Source: a virus
IMG/VR virus record: IMGVR_UViG_3300031507_000021
Span: 1-39,239 of that record
Length of the DNA stretch: 39,239 nt
Strand: one strand, 5' to 3'
Positions 2,904 to 34,134 of the stretch are shown one piece after another. The notes beneath the pieces are model-generated. The model was not told the DNA's origin. It saw only the letters and a program-made list of their open reading frames with translations, and did no database searches. Made by a program: the position numbers and the translations under genes. Position 1 is the first letter of the stretch; every line of letters begins with the position of its first letter.

Positions 2904-4193
2904 CTACCCCGCCACCACGGTTGCGGTGTTGAGCGGCGAATTGGTGACCGGAACTCCCATCGAGTCGAACGCCCCCACGGTGAGCACAGGCGTCTTGGTG
3001 GGGCCGTTGCCGAGCTGCACGAGGGAACCCTTGACGGCTGTGGTCCCCGTCGCCTCGATGCTCACCGTCGCGCCCTTGACGGTCGCCGCTGCCGTGGCTT
3101 CGACGGTGGCCGTCGCGCCCTTGATCTTGATCTCGCCATCGGACGTGAGTGTCATGGACGACGCCGCGAACTCCACCTGATCGGCGTTGGCTACCCACTT
3201 GAGCGCGCGATCTCCCGAGAAGCCACAGCACACATACGGGCCCTCGGGATTGCCACCGTCCCAGCCGAGCAGCACCGTCGAGCCCAGCGTGAACTGGATT
3301 TTCGCGCCGGTGCCGACGCGCACGGGCACGCGCTGCAGGCCACCGAGTCGCGCCTCGTTCCGACTCCCTATCGGGCGCACGTCGACGCTGGCCAAGTCGG
3401 TCGCCTGCGCCACCACCTCGCATAGGTAGGTAGCGTAGTAGTCGACGCCCGCGAGCGCCTGCTGGGCGATGGTCTGCGTCGCCGCGCTCGTGCCGCGCTC
3501 CTGGTCTGGGAAGTCTACCCACACCCGCGAACGCAGCCGGCCCGAGTCGATGGTGTCCATGACCTGGCCGACGTTGCCGACGTTCGCCAGGCTCGCGCCC
3601 GGCTCCACGAATGGCGACTCGACGCCAAGGAGATACGAGCCGTCGTTCGGGTCGCGATTCATCACGTCGAACGTTGCCGAGCTGGTGGGCCACGTCTCTT
3701 CGCCGATCCACAACTTGCCATCCGAGAGCATGCGCAAGCTCATTGCAGGCGCCACGATGTCGAGCAGCGCGCGCAGGTTCCGCCGCACGCTGTTGCCGCC
3801 GAAGACGCTCCACGCGGTGAGATTCTGTCCGAGGAAGGACGGCGCGATGGTGCTCGAGAGCGTTTCACCCGAGTCCTGGCAAAGGCTATTGAGGACGTCG
3901 CGCACGTAGGCGCCAGGCTGCACGAAGCTCCGCGGCGAGCTCGGCTTGCTCATGCCGCCGGCGCCGCCGATCACGCGCACGTGCATCGCGTCGAGGAAAT
4001 GGCCGGCGCGATTCGGGTCAACGACGCCGTGGAGCTCGTAGCCGGCATCGGCCTTGAGCGTGACCTTGGTGCCGGGGGCGAAGCCGGAGTCCTCGACCTG
4101 ATCGAGAATCAGATCTGCGAACCACACGCCGATGAGCGGGCGCAGTACGACGCCGCTCACCACCGCTACGCCGTTGGCCGTCACGAGCGCCAT
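2904..4193 (-). CDS. Baseplate hub/spike fusion protein
   Basis: A 429-residue protein; the ATG at 4193 overlaps the preceding TGA. An open frame continues further upstream but would run inside the neighbouring gene. The N-terminal 270 residues (VLNSLCQDSGET, SLRMLSDGKLWIG) look like a gpD/gp27-type hub. A middle segment with PVRVGTGAKIQFTLGS and VLLGWDGG resembles the OB-fold of gpV-type spikes. The C-terminal 90 residues are a repetitive series (IKIKGATATVEATA, VKGATVSIEATG, VKGSLVQLGNG), typical of the beta-helix of a puncturing needle. Combining hub, OB-fold and needle in one chain is compact; most P2- or Mu-like phages use separate proteins. Domain limits are estimates. Confidence 0.7.
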   Translation of the reverse strand: MALVTANGVAVVSGVVLRPLIGVWFADLILDQVEDSGFAPGTKVTLKADAGYELHGVVDPNRAGHFLDAMHVRVIGGAGGMSKPSSPRSFVQPGAYVRDVLNSLCQDSGETLSSTIAPSFLGQNLTAWSVFGGNSVRRNLRALLDIVAPAMSLRMLSDGKLWIGEETWPTSSATFDVMNRDPNDGSYLLGVESPFVEPGASLANVGNVGQVMDTIDSGRLRSRVWVDFPDQERGTSAATQTIAQQALAGVDYYATYLCEVVAQATDLASVDVRPIGSRNEARLGGLQRVPVRVGTGAKIQFTLGSTVLLGWDGGNPEGPYVCCGFSGDRALKWVANADQVEFAASSMTLTSDGEIKIKGATATVEATAAATVKGATVSIEATGTTAVKGSLVQLGNGPTKTPVLTVGAFDSMGVPVTNSPLNTATVVAG

Positions 4194-17408: not shown

Positions 17409-18598
17409 CACGTGTTCAGCCTATAGCCAGGAATGGGGTTGCGCCCTCGGTTGACCACTTCTTCAGCCACCAAGCGCGATGTAACGAGCCGCACAATGGC
17501 CTCCGCGATCACCTCATGCCGACGCTTGCACTTGGTCCGAATGTCCTTGGCCGTGAGCGGCTCGGTGGCTCCCTGCAGCGCCACGATGATGGCGTTTTCA
17601 ATCACGGCGTCGCGGTCACGTTGCGACTCGCCGTCGCCGTCCTCGTCAGCCTCGAGCCACAGCGTGTCGCCAGCGGGGCCGAGCGCGTTCTCGACGGTGA
17701 ACGTGAACGACTCGATCGATGGCGCGGCGCGGTGTTCGGGCGAGACGACGATGGCGTCGTCCTTGTGCGTGAGGTAGAGCGCCGAATCAACCCATCCGTG
17801 CAGCGCGCTCGAGCCGCGCAGGCGCTGGCCGGGGCGGCGTTTCGTCTCCGTCTCCTTCGCCATATGGTGGACGAGGCACACGGCGCAGTGGTGCTCGCGC
17901 TGCAGGACGCGGAGCGGGGCGAGCAGGGCGCTGACGATCTGCGCGTCGTTCTCGTCCTTGCCATGCAGGTCGCGCATCGGGTCGAGGCCGAGCAGCACCG
18001 GCTTGACCTTGGCGACGGTGCGCGCCAGCTTCGCCACCTGGCCCGGGTCGTCCAGCCTTAACGCCGGCACGTCGATTAGGTGCAGCGGGAGCGATGCCAG
18101 GTCGACGCCGAGGGCGCGGCACATGCGCGCGACGCGGTCGCGGGTCATCGCCGGCCGATCTTCGGCGTTGAACATCAGCACCGGGCCCTGTGCTACCTCG
18201 TAGCGGCCGAACACGGGCTTGCCGCTGGCGACGCACACGGCGAGTTGCACCGCGAGGAACGACTTGAACGACTTTGGCTCCCCGCCGATGATACCGACGC
18301 CCTCCCGCAGCCACAGGTCGTGCACGAGCCACTGCACCGGGCCCTCGTCGGGTACGGTGCCAATCTGCACCACGGGGAAGTCATCGGGCGCCGCGGCGGC
18401 GGGCGCTGGCGCATTCCACTCGGGCCGCCGCGGCTCACCGCTCCACTCGTAGTGCCCGTTGCTGCCGTTGCGCGCCTGCGCCTCTTCGCGCTCGGCGGCG
18501 GCTTGGCGTTCCTGTTCCTCGGCGTCGTGCGCGTCGTCGATCCATGTGCGATCGTCATCGAATGGCCGCTCATCGCTCACCGTCCGCACCTCGGGCAT
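17408..18598 (-). CDS. RecA-fold replicative ATPase (RepA / AAA_25-like helicase)
   Basis: This 396-residue protein starts at ATG 18598, inside the end of the DnaB-N-like gene; a longer open frame above it lacks protein character. After a 90-residue charged, Ala/Pro-rich leader come WLREGVGIIGGEPKSFKSF (Walker A, GGEPKSFKS), VLMFNAEDRP, KPVLLGLDPM (Walker B) and CAVCLVHHMAKE (sensor His-His). These are hallmarks of the RepA/RSF1010-type hexameric helicase and AAA_25 families. The C-terminal 80 residues resemble a winged helix (LTAKDIRTKCKRRHEVI, RLVTSRLVAEEVV). It probably unwinds DNA during phage replication together with the upstream protein. Confidence 0.8.
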   Translation of the reverse strand: MPEVRTVSDERPFDDDRTWIDDAHDAEEQERQAAAEREEAQARNGSNGHYEWSGEPRRPEWNAPAPAAAAPDDFPVVQIGTVPDEGPVQWLVHDLWLREGVGIIGGEPKSFKSFLAVQLAVCVASGKPVFGRYEVAQGPVLMFNAEDRPAMTRDRVARMCRALGVDLASLPLHLIDVPALRLDDPGQVAKLARTVAKVKPVLLGLDPMRDLHGKDENDAQIVSALLAPLRVLQREHHCAVCLVHHMAKETETKRRPGQRLRGSSALHGWVDSALYLTHKDDAIVVSPEHRAAPSIESFTFTVENALGPAGDTLWLEADEDGDGESQRDRDAVIENAIIVALQGATEPLTAKDIRTKCKRRHEVIAEAIVRLVTSRLVAEEVVNRGRNPIPGYRLNT

Positions 18599-18960
18599 TG
18601 TCGAACCTCGGCAGTGAGCCGATCGATGGCCGCCCGCGCCGCTGGCCTCGCGAGCAGCTCGTGCACGATGTAGCGGCGCACCCACGCCGCCCACTGCCCA
18701 GCGTGGAACACGTGCGACGCCACGAAACCCTGCGTCACGTGGTCACGCGCCAGCGCGGTAACCACAGTCAAGAATGCCTCATCAAACCCCAGGCTATCGT
18801 CTGGCACGAACGCCGGCGGATACAACTCGCCGGCGTCGGCAATGATTTGGAACAGCGCCCCATGCTCGGGCGCGAGAAAATGACGCGGCTCGAGCTCGAT
18901 ACGACGCGGCCACAAAAACAACGCGGCGAGTAAGCGCCGTTCGAGCTCGAGCCGTTCCAT
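18577..18960 (-). CDS. DnaB N-terminal-domain-like protein
   Basis: The product has 127 residues; its ATG at 18960 has AAGGAG ten bases upstream. The opening MERLELERRLLAALFLWP and the helical pattern that follows (LAPEHGALFQIIADAGEL, DEAFLTVVTAL) match the N-terminal helical domain of DnaB-type replicative helicases, which contacts primase. The ATPase domain is missing and is encoded next, overlapping by 22 bases, as a separate RepA-like protein. This suggests a two-gene helicase. A helicase-loader role is an alternative. The frame above 18960 runs into the pentamer array and was rejected as coding. Confidence 0.6.
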   Translation of the reverse strand: MERLELERRLLAALFLWPRRIELEPRHFLAPEHGALFQIIADAGELYPPAFVPDDSLGFDEAFLTVVTALARDHVTQGFVASHVFHAGQWAAWVRRYIVHELLARPAARAAIDRLTAEVRQCPRCGR

Positions 18961-18980: not shown

Positions 18981-19490
18981 CGCCTGCTTCGCCAGACCTC
19001 GCCTCGCCAGACCACGCCGAACCGCGCCATGCCTGCCTCGCCGCGCCGTGCCCCGCCATGCCTCGCCAAGCCATGCCATACCGCGCCGGTCCAGACCCCG
19101 CCCAACCCCGCCATTCCTTGCCTGCCCCACCCGGCCGTGCCCGGTCGCGCCATGCCTCGCCAGTCCAAACCCCGCCTCGCCTGCCTGTCACGCCTCACCA
19201 GACCGCGCCCAACCAAGCCCCGCCCCGTCTGCCTTGCCTCACCGCGCCGTTCCATGACCACCTGACTCCGCCCCGCCTTGCCTGCCCAACCGAGCCACGC
19301 CTTGCCCGTCCTTGTCTCCCTTGCCTGCGGTGCCACACCAACGCCTCGCCGAACTCCGCCATGCCACGCCTGGCCTGCCCAACCGGACCGCGCCATTCAA
19401 ATCCCGACCACGCCCCTCCGCGCCTCGCCTTGCCTGCCTTGCCTGACCGCGCCGGGCCTTGCCTGCGCCTTGTCTCGCCTCGCCTGCCTA
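18981..19490. repeat. Pentamer-phased degenerate tandem repeat array, about 510 bases
   Basis: The plus strand is built from about 100 five-base units of the form (G/A/T)CCNN, mostly GCCNN: for example gcctc gccgc gccgt gcccc, with occasional phase slips. CC is nearly invariant and the other positions vary. The array fills the whole gap between a conserved phage gene and the DnaB-N-like gene. Because stops are avoided, all minus frames and several plus frames are open and spell Gly/Arg/Ala-rich five-residue repeats. I treat those as not genes. Function is unknown; replication origin, nucleoid-protein platform or recombination track are possibilities. Confidence 0.85.
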
Positions 19491-19967
19491 AGCAACCCGC
19501 AGCGTCGGCACTGCATCCGACAATCGCTCGAGTCGATAAACGATGTCATCAATCGACTCGCTCATGCCCAGCGCTGCAGCGAGGTTTCTAGCGCGCCGCA
19601 TCGCGGCGAGTGCTCGGCCGCATTCTTGCGCGATTACCGCCGACGCCATGTCCTCGTCGGATTGCACCCGCGGGAGCGAGATGTACCCGGCCTCACCGAC
19701 GCGATTAGTAGGGTTTTGAACATAGCCGACCGTCTTAATGGTTCGCTCCTCGAGCCTCACCTCGACGCGCACACTGCGAATGAGCGTGCGCGCCTGCTCG
19801 ATACGGTGCGCGTGGCCTGCCTTGGCGTCGTCCCACTCGAACCGATCATGGAATAGGTGAGCAGGATCCTGCGCCACGCGCACGACATCCTCGGGCAATA
19901 GCGCCCCGTCGTGCTTGTCGGCGATTCCCTCCAGTTCTCGGCGGATCTGATCTGGCGTCGGTGCCAT
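19488..19967 (-). CDS. Conserved phage protein of unknown function
   Basis: The protein has 159 residues with an ATG at 19967, three bases after the previous gene. The N-terminal half (MAPTPDQIRRELEGIADKHD, LLPEDVVRVAQDP, HDRFEWDDAKAGHAHRIEQA) is a pattern I recognise from many phage early regions, usually next to recombination or replication genes, but no function is known to me. It is soluble and helical, with no metal or nucleotide motif. The TAG at 19488 lies within the start of the pentamer array. Confidence 0.75.
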   Translation of the reverse strand: MAPTPDQIRRELEGIADKHDGALLPEDVVRVAQDPAHLFHDRFEWDDAKAGHAHRIEQARTLIRSVRVEVRLEERTIKTVGYVQNPTNRVGEAGYISLPRVQSDEDMASAVIAQECGRALAAMRRARNLAAALGMSESIDDIVYRLERLSDAVPTLRVA

Positions 19968-19970
19968 TGT

Positions 19971-20783
19971 CTACGCGCCCACCGTCGCCACCGGCTTCGC
20001 ATGTTGCTTGGTGGCGCCGTTCATGCCGCGACCCTCGCGGCGCACGCGCTCCGCGTCGAACCACGTCAAGAGGCGTTCGGTTTCCTCGTCGTATGGCTCG
20101 GGCTCGGCGAGCGCCTTGTCCTGCTCGACGATCCCCAACTTGCACACGCGCAAGAACTCGGGATCATCGGCGCTCACCAATTCAAACTGGCCGTTGGAGT
20201 CCGACCCCTTCTGCTGGCGCCAGTCGCCGATCCCTTGCGTCATGCCAGCAACGGCGAGCAGATTGAGAATCGTCTGCTCTTTGAGGATCGGCGTCATGAA
20301 GCGGAGTTGAAGGATGCACGCCCACTCCTCGAGCTTGGCGCGCGTGCGGATATCGGGCGCGCGATTGATGCCGCTCGAAATCACCGGCGCGCAGAAGATC
20401 TTCGGCACGCCGTAGATATCGACGCGATCGCCCATGACCCAAACGAGACGTCCGATCTGCGCCTTGGCCGCGCCTGGAATGTCGAGCGCAGCCGACGCGA
20501 GCGCCTTTTTGAAAGCTCCCGCCGGGAAGTTGAGCCGCGTTGGGTCGTCGTCGCCGCGATTCTGATATGTCGCGTTGCGATACTCCGCGTATGGATCATG
20601 TTTCAAATGCGCAGCCTTTTCAGCGGCATTCTTCTTAGGGGCAGGCATCAGCAACTCCTGCCGCGTTTTTTCGGACATGGCGTTGTAGATCAGACGCTTT
20701 CCGAGAATGCACACGTTAAGCACGCCCTGATTGAGCTTGAGTATCGAGATCTCCACAGAATCGACTGCCGGTTTTTTCATCAT
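19971..20783 (-). CDS. Conserved phage early protein, possible DNA-metabolism factor
   Basis: The product has 270 residues; an ATG-ATG start at 20783 follows GGAGG. Conserved-looking blocks are LGKRLIYNAMSEKTRQELL, KHDPYAEYRNATYQNR, FPAGAFKKALASAALDIPG, DIYGVPKIF and RTRAKLEEWACILQL. These mark a family often seen beside phage recombination genes but without an assigned activity. The basic C-terminus (RVRREGRGMNGATK) could touch nucleic acid. It is followed after three bases by another conserved phage protein. I cannot tell whether it is enzymatic. Confidence 0.72.
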   Translation of the reverse strand: MMKKPAVDSVEISILKLNQGVLNVCILGKRLIYNAMSEKTRQELLMPAPKKNAAEKAAHLKHDPYAEYRNATYQNRGDDDPTRLNFPAGAFKKALASAALDIPGAAKAQIGRLVWVMGDRVDIYGVPKIFCAPVISSGINRAPDIRTRAKLEEWACILQLRFMTPILKEQTILNLLAVAGMTQGIGDWRQQKGSDSNGQFELVSADDPEFLRVCKLGIVEQDKALAEPEPYDEETERLLTWFDAERVRREGRGMNGATKQHAKPVATVGA

Positions 20784-21060: not shown

Positions 21061-21251
21061 CGACGTCGCTCCTCGATACGAAAGTGCAGCACCGTCTCGC
21101 AAAGGTCCCAGATCGCCTGCCTACGCGGCGTCAACGGCTTCCTTTCAGCAATCACGAAGCCAGCGGCGCAAGCCAACACGAGCGTCCCGAGATCGAGACG
21201 CAGGAGCAACTCGACGCACTCCTGTTGATTGACGTAGTCGCGCGTCGTCAT
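21042..21251 (-). CDS. Small protein of unknown function
   Basis: A 69-residue product whose ATG at 21251 overlaps the TGA of the RecU-like gene (ATGA). It contains a moderately hydrophobic stretch (LRLDLGTLVLACAAGFVIAE) that could be a membrane helix or a buried core, followed by a basic helix (RRQAIWDLCETVLHFRIEERRR). No family is recognised. Tight coupling to recU on one side and the membrane-protein gene on the other supports expression. Confidence 0.55.
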   Translation of the reverse strand: MTTRDYVNQQECVELLLRLDLGTLVLACAAGFVIAERKPLTPRRQAIWDLCETVLHFRIEERRRWAMRS

Positions 21252-22045
21252 CCGCGCCCTCCCTTCCACGTGCCCGGACGCCCCCGCTGTGCCTTGCGTG
21301 CGCGCCCGACGTTCGCCTCGAGCTCGCGTCGCGTGTACTCGTCGAGCCAGGCGATGTACGCGCCGTGATCGTCAGGCGACGGCCGCCGCGCCATGAGCTG
21401 CGCCAGGGTTTCGCCCTCGGCGCCCCTGCGGGCCCGCCGCTCAGCCCAGCGCTGATCACGGGCATCGTCGCGCGCGTACTGCTCGTCGAGCGAGATGACG
21501 GCGCCGGCGTCGCGCTCGGCCTTGACGCGTTCGTGCGCCCCGTCCAAGTCAGGATGTACGCCCCCGTCGAGGAAGTGCGTGTGCCGCTTCTCGCTGTCGA
21601 AGCGGTCGGTCTCGGGCAACCGCAGCCCGTAAGCGCGCGCCCAATCGAGCGATAGAGAGGCCCGCCACGGCGCGGCGAGAAAACGGTCGACCTGCGCCCA
21701 CGCCACCGCGTACACCTCGCCAACGCGCTTGTAGTCGATCACCAGCTGCACCTCGACGCCGAGGCCGACCAGGCCGCGCGCGGTCTTGATCTGCGCGCCG
21801 CTGAGGTGGTCGTCGTCGAGCGGAAAGCTCTCGCGCTCGGTCTCCTTGGCCTCGAGCGCGAGCGCCCTACCGCCGGCGCGGGCGCCGAGGAAATCGATCG
21901 GGGCCTCGCCCACGTAGTGCATGGCGCCGCCAGGGCCCGTGGCCACGCGCGGATACTGCCGCGCGAGCCAGGCGCGCCCCGATTTTGCGCACACGGCCGC
22001 CTCGTGCAGGATGCCGAGCTCGAGCGGCTTGCCGCGGCCGCTCAC
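21248..22045 (-). CDS. recU: Holliday-junction resolvase, RecU-like
   Basis: This 265-residue protein starts at GTG 22045, which overlaps the preceding TGA (GTGA). The first 160 residues follow the RecU/PD-(D/E)XK pattern: SGRGKPLELGILHEAAVC, a central GEAPIDFLGARAGGRALALEAKETE (metal-binding Asp and Glu-x-Lys, split here only for description), DDHLSGAQIKTARGLVGLG and VQLVIDYKRVGEVYAV. RecU cuts four-way junctions, which would resolve recombination intermediates before packaging. The C-terminal 100 residues (DLDGAHERVKAERD, RWAERRARRG) are charged and not part of the family. No independent promoter is visible; it is one link in the coupled leftward operon. Confidence 0.8.
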   Translation of the reverse strand: MSGRGKPLELGILHEAAVCAKSGRAWLARQYPRVATGPGGAMHYVGEAPIDFLGARAGGRALALEAKETERESFPLDDDHLSGAQIKTARGLVGLGVEVQLVIDYKRVGEVYAVAWAQVDRFLAAPWRASLSLDWARAYGLRLPETDRFDSEKRHTHFLDGGVHPDLDGAHERVKAERDAGAVISLDEQYARDDARDQRWAERRARRGAEGETLAQLMARRPSPDDHGAYIAWLDEYTRRELEANVGRARKAQRGRPGTWKGGRG

Positions 22046-22224
22046 CACCCACCGCCAAGTAGTCGCCGCACCGCGTCCCAGAAGACCGGGCGATACCACC
22101 CGGCGGCCGCTTCGGCATGCTGCAGCTTGCGAACCGTCGCGAACGCCAACCACTGCTCGAAGAACGCGAGGCGCGCGATCAGCCTCGCGGCGGCGAGTGG
22201 GCTCGAACGGCCGCCGGCGATCAC
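22042..22224 (-). CDS. Small helical protein, unknown function
   Basis: The product has 60 residues. The GTG at 22224 overlaps the upstream TGA, and its own TGA overlaps the GTG of the recU-like gene, so it is coupled on both sides. It is an Ala/Arg-rich helix with aromatic residues (ARLAFFEQWLAFATV, GWYRPVFWDAV). No family is recognised. Coupling and GC-rich codon use support it as a real gene. Confidence 0.6.
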   Translation of the reverse strand: MIAGGRSSPLAAARLIARLAFFEQWLAFATVRKLQHAEAAAGWYRPVFWDAVRRLLGGGW

Positions 22225-32902: not shown

Positions 32903-33073
32903 ATGATTCGAGCGCGGCGATATGTGTGGGGGCGGCCGGTGCAGCGCGAGTACCTCACGCCCCGCGGCGATTTCGTCCGCGAGTACTGGACGGGTTATGG
33001 CCACCTGTATCGGACGGTGCAGCTCATGGCGAACGTCGAAGAGATCACCTTGACGGTGGGTCTATCGGCCTAG
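32903..33073 (+). CDS. Small protein of unknown function
   Basis: The product has 56 residues from ATG 32903, preceded by a GGGGGG run. MIRARRYVWGRPVQREYLTP with VREYWTGYGHLYRTV is basic and Tyr-rich, and no family is known. It lies beyond the int terminator, so it needs its own promoter. Its TAG at 33071-33073 shares CTAG with the stop of the opposing RTX lipoprotein gene. The isolated position suggests an accessory (moron) gene. Confidence 0.55.
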   Translation: MIRARRYVWGRPVQREYLTPRGDFVREYWTGYGHLYRTVQLMANVEEITLTVGLSA

Positions 33074-34134
33074 CACGTCGACTCGCACGCGGCCCCGATC
33101 GGCGTGCAGCAATCAACGCCCGTGCCGCCGCTCGACGCGCCCACGCCGGCATCTTGGAATAGGCGATCATTGCCCGAGCCACCGCCAAGCAGATCGTCTC
33201 CGTCGCCACCGTCGAGCGTGTCGTCGCCATTGCCGCCAAGCAGCACGTCGTCGCCCGAGCCACCGTCGAGCAAGTCGTTGCCGTCGCCGCCCTGGATGGT
33301 ATCCTCGTCGGCCTCGCCGAACAGACGATCGTCGCCCGCGCCGCCCTCAATCTCGTCAACTCCGACACCGCCATGCAGCTCGTCGAGGCCAGCGCCGCCG
33401 CTCACGAAGTCGTTGCCGCTCTCGGCATAGATCAGATCGTTGCCGTCGCCGCCAAAGAGCGAGTCGTCGCCAGGCCCGCCGTAAACCGTATCGTCACCCG
33501 CGCCAGCGTCGGATGCGTCGTTGCCTTCCTCGAGGAACAGCGTGTCATTGCCAGCGCCGCCGAGCACGAGATCGTCGCCCCCGCCGGTATAGATGACGTC
33601 GTCACCTTCGCCAGCGTCGACGGCATCGGCCCCGCCGAGCAGGATCACAATGTCGTCACCGGGGCCAGCCAGCACGAGATCGTGTCCGCCGCGACCGATG
33701 ATCGTATCGTCCCCCTGTAGGCCCACGAAGCAATCGTCGGCCCCAGTTCCGACGAGCACGTCGTTGCCGGCGGTACCCGTGATCACGACATAACCCGGCG
33801 GGCACGAGGTGGGGATTTGCGGCGTCGGCGTGCATTGCGGCGTGGGAATGTCGGGCGGCGGTGGGGGCGGTGGCGTCGCCATATCGGCGAGCGGCGGCGT
33901 GGCCATGTCGACAACGGGCGGCGTGGCCATGTCGGCAGGCGGCGCAGGGCACATGTCTCGCGGCGGCGGGTGGTGGTGCGAGGCGAGGATCGCTTGCGCC
34001 TCGCGCACGCGCGCCGTCTCAGCGGAGCTCAGCGGAGCCGAGGAGACACTACCTACCGCGTCGCCGCCAAGATCGCCAGGCGTGCAGGCGGCGAGCGCAA
34101 GCGCACACGGAATCACGAAGCGGATGCGTTGCAT
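33070..34134 (-). CDS. RTX-repeat lipoprotein (accessory 'moron' gene)
   Basis: A 354-residue protein whose ATG at 34134 has AGAGAGGT upstream. The signal peptide ends in a lipobox (MQRIRFVIPCALALAAC, Leu-Ala-Ala-Cys), so it is lipid-anchored outside the cytoplasm. A linker follows with three DMATPP units and a Pro run. Then come about 23 consecutive nine-residue RTX units (GDDTLDGGD, GNDLLDGGS and variants), which in other proteins fold as a Ca2+-bound beta-roll. The C-terminus has a Cys pair (VDCCTP). Such surface lipoproteins are normal for Myxococcota chromosomes but not for phage virions. I infer lysogenic conversion, perhaps surface masking or superinfection exclusion. It lies downstream of the fibre block with 83 bases between. 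Confidence 0.85.
   Translation of the reverse strand: MQRIRFVIPCALALAACTPGDLGGDAVGSVSSAPLSSAETARVREAQAILASHHHPPPRDMCPAPPADMATPPVVDMATPPLADMATPPPPPPPDIPTPQCTPTPQIPTSCPPGYVVITGTAGNDVLVGTGADDCFVGLQGDDTIIGRGGHDLVLAGPGDDIVILLGGADAVDAGEGDDVIYTGGGDDLVLGGAGNDTLFLEEGNDASDAGAGDDTVYGGPGDDSLFGGDGNDLIYAESGNDFVSGGAGLDELHGGVGVDEIEGGAGDDRLFGEADEDTIQGGDGNDLLDGGSGDDVLLGGNGDDTLDGGDGDDLLGGGSGNDRLFQDAGVGASSGGTGVDCCTPIGAACESTC

What the first reader, a model, noticed from the sequence alone, without database searches (positions are those of the whole stretch)
18981..19490. A 510-base array with strict five-base phasing and degenerate units
Roughly 100 units of (G/A/T)CCNN fill the gap before the helicase genes. 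The non-CC positions vary widely but the phase is kept with few slips. That is unlike a simple microsatellite and suggests selection for helical phasing of CC (two units are nearly one DNA turn) or for a protein that reads it. Its location before the replication genes makes an origin or a polymerase/nucleoid track plausible.
Basis: partly seen in the sequence, partly recalled or inferred. Interest (0 to 1): 0.8.

Follow-up and report, generated by a model that had tools for sequence, protein, structure and literature searches.

The report
Phage guide-RNA array of VIPR type
The odd five-base repeat is almost certainly a bank of guide RNAs that a temperate bacterial virus makes for a small CRISPR-like protein encoded just upstream, probably to silence competing viruses; this kind of system (VIPR) was first described in a 2026 preprint.

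Summary
The array is real: about 18985-19488, 107 parsed units, 74 canonical on the minus strand against 22.6±3.4 in shuffles. Read in the direction of transcription it is (GGYNN)n, with GGY fixed and NN variable, broken about every 10 units by a four-base unit, mostly GGCA. It begins in the stop codon of a minus-strand gene pair. The first gene (19971-20783) belongs to phrog_4652, the family of the SUSP1 Vipr protein (PDB 36pp, profile E=2e-20); its model has the Cas7/Csm3 RAMP fold (Z about 10). The second (19488-19967, phrog_15946) is the putative Vap. A blind DNA scan for the array pattern alone stopped at 120 viral contigs; 93 carry a Vipr homologue in the DNA held, always on the array's strand. 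This matches VIPR, the RNA-guided DNA-binding system of PMC13142463, whose vrRNAs are GGY/NN repeats read with a one-base skip. The origin, helical-phasing and nucleoid-track readings have no support. Slightly new is the anatomy: many GGCA-punctuated arrays with guide-sized blocks of 7-12 units and no structured tail between them. Targets are not established; one tentative in-frame match exists.

The parts
18985..19488 (-). vrRNA (guide) array: (GGYNN)n with four-base punctuation units, mostly GGCA; first base is the last base of the vap stop codon
   Evidence: same kind of array in relatives
19971..20783 (-). vipr gene, 270 aa, RAMP (Cas7-like) fold with GxGxWR glycine-rich loop
   Evidence: phrog_4652, same family as SUSP1 Vipr; profile without it E=1.8e-42; PDB 36pp SUSP1 Vipr by profile E=2.3e-20; model pLDDT 88.8, Csm3-like Z 10
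19488..19967 (-). putative vap (accessory) gene, 159 aa
   Evidence: phrog_15946, conserved beside vipr and array in 78 of 120 array loci; fold unassigned
19380..19434 (-). candidate guide block B1, 11 units between GGCA units
19127..19181 (-). candidate guide block B6, 11 units; tentative target in L138/L141
19038..19122 (-). candidate guide block B7, 17 units (perhaps two guides)
18989..19033 (-). candidate guide block B8, 9 units
18577..18960 (-). gene downstream of the array (127 aa, no family match), not part of the system as far as known

Best explanation
The array is the vrRNA (guide RNA) array of a VIPR system carried by a temperate tailed phage or prophage. Shown here by sequence: the GGYNN array, a Vipr-family RAMP gene and a conserved Vap-family gene form one co-directional unit, and this combination recurs across many viruses. 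Inferred from the characterised systems: the minus strand is transcribed with vipr and vap; the transcript yields guides of about 7-12 units, probably bounded at the GGCA four-base units; Vipr subunits coat each guide as Cas7 coats crRNA, holding the GGY triplets out of pairing and presenting the NN dinucleotides; the NN letters pair with double-stranded DNA as NNxNNx (one-base skip, usually the wobble base of a gene) and silence that gene, most likely in competing phages or prophages.
For: Array composition GG-Y-NN on the operon strand. Vipr family membership by PHROG with SUSP1 Vipr, by held-out profile E=1.8e-42, by profile hit on PDB 36pp 'SUSP1 Vipr protein' E=2.3e-20, and by template-free model with Csm3/Cas7 RAMP fold. 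Blind array scan: 93 of 120 loci hold Vipr, 95 Vipr hits on the same strand and 0 on the opposite, 32 of 36 where 2.5 kb or more flanks both sides. Blocks of mode 9-10 units fit the 9-16 repeats of one vrRNA in PMC13142463. NN composition fits codon positions 1+2 best (489 of 500 bootstraps), as the one-base skip predicts.
Against: Expression, RNA binding and silencing were not tested. No target is established for the window; broad searches gave no excess over shuffled guides. No structured 3' tail like that of SUSP1 vrRNA was found in the array. The Vap is of another family than SUSP1's (phrog_15946 versus phrog_5926). The window array is less regular than most (74 of 107 units canonical). 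Single-sequence similarity to SUSP1 Vipr is weak (E=1.1). The dinucleotide observed/expected test did not favour the sense codon frame.
Confidence: 0.95

Rival explanations
1. A replication origin or helically phased DNA track: GG/CC every half turn bends DNA or loads a replication protein.
For: Lies between a phage gene and a helicase gene; period 10 is near one helical turn.
Against: In other viruses the array lies beside vipr and not beside replication genes. Four-base slips every 10 units or so would break helical phase. Strand is always that of vipr (95 to 0).
Confidence: 0.02
2. A degenerate microsatellite or neutral slippage product, or a repeat-coding gene.
For: Tandem Repeats Finder sees weak period-5 and period-10 stretches; chance ORFs cross the array.
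Against: Slippage gives identical neighbours; here NN varies freely while GG is fixed. Arrays of this kind lie beside one gene family in many viruses. Pentamers with four-base slips keep no reading frame.
Confidence: 0.01
3. A vrRNA array whose protein uses it for self-regulation or for host genes and not against rival phages.
For: No rival-phage target is established for the window.
Against: In PMC13142463 most assigned targets of two clades lie in satellites or prophages. No window guide has a good match in the window itself in the general scan.
Confidence: 0.1

Closest known systems
VIPR (Viral Interference Programmable Repeat) systems, e.g. Escherichia phage SUSP1 and the Pseudomonas fulva prophage (PMC13142463; PDB 36pp)
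   Same: Vipr-family RAMP protein of about 200-270 aa, small accessory gene beside it, GGY/NN pentamer repeats on the same strand, temperate phage setting.
   Different: One long contiguous array with GGCA units between blocks instead of separate vrRNAs each with a structured tail; C-rich Y (GGC more than GGT); Vap of family phrog_15946 instead of phrog_5926. May correspond to the 'staggered arrays' that the paper mentions; its supplement was not available.
VIPR-like loci of Mycobacterium cluster F1 phages (Quico, DRBy19, Donkeykong) and Gordonia phages (UmaThurman, Pipp, ODay, Ecliptus)
   Same: Same two protein families and GGCA-punctuated GGYNN arrays.
   Different: In the F1 phages the array lies upstream of vipr, in the window downstream of vap; sequences of guides differ.
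CRISPR-Cas class 1 (type III Csm3/Cas7)
   Same: Fold of the RNA-coating backbone subunit; array of guides.
   Different: No cas operon and no repeat-spacer array; guide letters are dispersed in pentamers.

Membership tests
VIPR | Vipr protein: RAMP homologue related to SUSP1 Vipr | tested here: met
VIPR | Tandem GGY/NN (YNNGG) repeats in noncoding DNA beside vipr | tested here: met
VIPR | Minimal locus of vipr plus a vap gene, phage-borne | tested here: met
   vap-family neighbour phrog_15946 conserved in 78 of 120 array loci; phage genes in window. That this family is one of the paper's vap1-6 could not be checked.
VIPR | 9-16 repeats per vrRNA | tested here: inconclusive
   blocks between four-base units: mode 9-10, mostly 7-12 in the collection; 4-17 in the window. 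Real transcript ends unknown.
VIPR | Structured invariant 3' tail on each vrRNA (type II) | tested here: inconclusive
   none seen between blocks; fold no better than shuffles; other VIPR types differ in architecture
VIPR | vrRNA is expressed and binds Vipr | not testable with these tools
   needs small-RNA sequencing and pull-down
VIPR | DNA recognition with the one-base skip | tested here: inconclusive
   NN composition fits codon positions 1+2; one tentative target; general target scans without excess
CRISPR-Cas class 1 | CRISPR repeats with spacers and cas genes | tested here: not met
   no near-identical long repeats in the array; neighbouring genes have no PADLOC match

The most novel reading that the evidence does not exclude
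GGCA-punctuated, tail-less contiguous arrays are a distinct VIPR architecture in which a four-base unit in a GGCRN-GGCA-GGCRN context marks guide boundaries (a processing or capping signal read by Vipr or Vap), so that one transcript yields many guides without separate tails, and blocks are gained and lost rather like CRISPR spacers.
Probability: 0.35. Interest if true: 0.65.

Novelty: new member of a known kind. Interest (0 to 1): 0.45.

Why it matters
It places one of the newest RNA-guided systems in an unstudied phage and shows that long GGCA-punctuated guide arrays are common in environmental viruses (the scan stopped at 120 contigs). It gives hundreds of candidate guides, a simple DNA signature for finding more, and a testable rule for where one guide ends and the next begins. 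If many guides can be matched to targets, they would record which phages compete in nature.

Tried and rejected
Rfam: no match in the window or in eight other loci, most with arrays. NCBIfam and PADLOC have no model for the family. RNA fold of the array: no better than shuffles (z -1.1). Target search of 687 guides against 1.27 Mb of held viral DNA with skips 0-3: no excess over shuffled guides. F1 and Gordonia guides against parts of Che8, Giles and Bxb1: nothing. Window blocks B1, B5, B7 and B8 (19380-19434, 19190-19229, 19038-19122, 18989-19033) in viral contigs: B8 none; B1 out of frame; B7 hits do not extend; B5 hits fill the whole pattern and cannot be checked by extension, and most are not in an open frame, so all are taken as chance. 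Other window guides against the phage with the tentative B6 match: nothing. B6 in 396 actinobacterial genomes: one further hit, as expected by chance. Coding signature of NN: supported by composition, not by observed/expected dinucleotides. Vap fold: no significant PDB match. First search with the downstream gene 18577-18960 found no relatives.

Full report
OBSERVATION. The region 18981-19490 holds a true period-5 array. On the minus strand it reads GGYNN. Of 107 parsed units 74 are exact GGYNN, against 22.6±3.4 in dinucleotide shuffles. Thirteen four-base units interrupt it, eight of them GGCA. The array starts in the last base of the TAG stop of the gene 19967->19488 and ends about 25 bases before the start of the gene 18960->18577.

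CONTEXT. The window is a 39-kb virus record with terminase, portal, integrase, RecT-like, exonuclease and repressor genes, so a temperate phage or prophage. The host is unknown; the terminase is about 50% identical to those of phages from several phyla. The minus-strand order is 20783->19971 (phrog_4652), 19967->19488 (phrog_15946), array, an unassigned gene, an AAA_25 helicase.

RELATIVES. Blastn with the array found similar arrays in Mycobacterium cluster F1 phages. These lie beside genes of the same two families. tblastn of the F1 phrog_4652 protein found it in only 33 of 50,697 phage records, including Gordonia phages and a cyanophage. All four Gordonia loci and the cyanophage locus examined carry GGYNN arrays.

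IDENTIFICATION. A paper search found PMC13142463 (bioRxiv 2026, version 2), which describes VIPR: a RAMP-fold Vipr protein, an accessory Vap, and vrRNAs of YNNGG repeats that guide binding to double-stranded DNA with a one-nucleotide skip and repress competing phages. The SUSP1 gene beside its GGYNN tracts is phrog_4652, the family of the window protein. A profile of Viprs made without the window and its four nearest relatives finds the window protein at E=1.8e-42. A profile with it finds PDB 36pp, 'SUSP1 Vipr protein', at 2.3e-20. The template-free model (pLDDT 88.8) is a Cas7/Csm3-like RAMP, Z up to 10.1; one of the three significant matches among viral models is named 'Cas system-associated RAMP superfamily protein'. 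Single-sequence similarity to SUSP1 Vipr is weak, so the assignment rests on profiles, fold and context together.

ASSOCIATION TEST. Of these, 93 have a Vipr homologue in the DNA held and 98 have Vipr or Vap. All 95 Vipr hits are on the array's strand. Among the 36 loci with 2.5 kb or more on both sides, 32 have Vipr. The window's closest Vipr relatives, about 50% identical, are L134-L137, L035, L052, L056 and L068. L134, L137, L035, L052, L056 and L068 carry recognisable arrays, L135 a degenerate one, and none was seen in L136.

ANATOMY. In the collection the four-base unit is GGCA in 899 of about 1060 cases. Blocks between such units hold mostly 7-12 pentamers, mode 9-10, close to the 9-16 repeats reported for one vrRNA. 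Around GGCA the neighbouring units are constrained: their first N is a purine in about 87-90%. In L035 the guides are separated by a repeated non-GGY handle that follows GGCA. In F1 phages whose vipr region is 98-99% identical the arrays differ by insertions and replaced stretches. I infer that GGCA marks guide boundaries; this is not shown. The paper mentions staggered arrays with overlapping vrRNAs, which may be this type; its supplement was not available to me.

CODE. NN composition in 4978 interior units fits codon positions 1 and 2, sense strand, better than any other frame in 489 of 500 bootstraps, and the window's own units fit its own genes best in that frame too. This agrees with the published rule that the skipped base tends to be the wobble base. 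It is not conclusive, because the signal is in base composition and not in dinucleotide preference.

TARGETS. Guide 19127-19181 (B6) matches a viral gene (L138) and its homologue in an actinobacterial assembly (L141) at 20 of 22 bases with one-base skips, in an open reading frame. Nine units were required by the search; of the two units outside the pattern one matches. The 13 other genome hits are of the kind expected by chance, and no second guide matches that phage, so this stays tentative. Other guides gave nothing convincing, and general searches gave no excess over shuffles.

VERDICT. A VIPR locus with a long vrRNA array: a new member of a known, very recently described kind. Its function in this phage, silencing of competing mobile elements, is inferred from the characterised members.

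Noticed in passing
L035 4050-4280 (-): A close Vipr relative has guides separated by a repeated handle of about 25 bases (GGCATGGGTGAACGTGAAGTGACGC), intermediate between contiguous GGCA arrays and vrRNAs with separate tails.
   Followed up: partly
L103 12350-13545, L125 6723-8007, L081 2156-2938: Very long arrays (about 0.8-1.3 kb, some 15-25 blocks) in single viral contigs.
   Followed up: partly
L005, L006, L007 (Mycobacterium phages Quico, DRBy19, Donkeykong), about 2965-3000: The array of these phages ends in GGCTGGGCAACCAGCC, a perfect hairpin with a GCAA tetraloop, perhaps the 3' cap of the last guide.
   Followed up: no
L105 1029-1673 and 3217-3936: Two Vipr homologues on one viral contig, with two arrays.
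   Followed up: no
window 33070-34134 (-): Reading frame with many GGxGxDxL repeats like those of RTX calcium-binding proteins, near the integrase end of the phage.
   Followed up: no
window 21248-22153 (-): Holliday-junction resolvase family match (phrog_843) upstream of vipr on the same strand.
   Followed up: no
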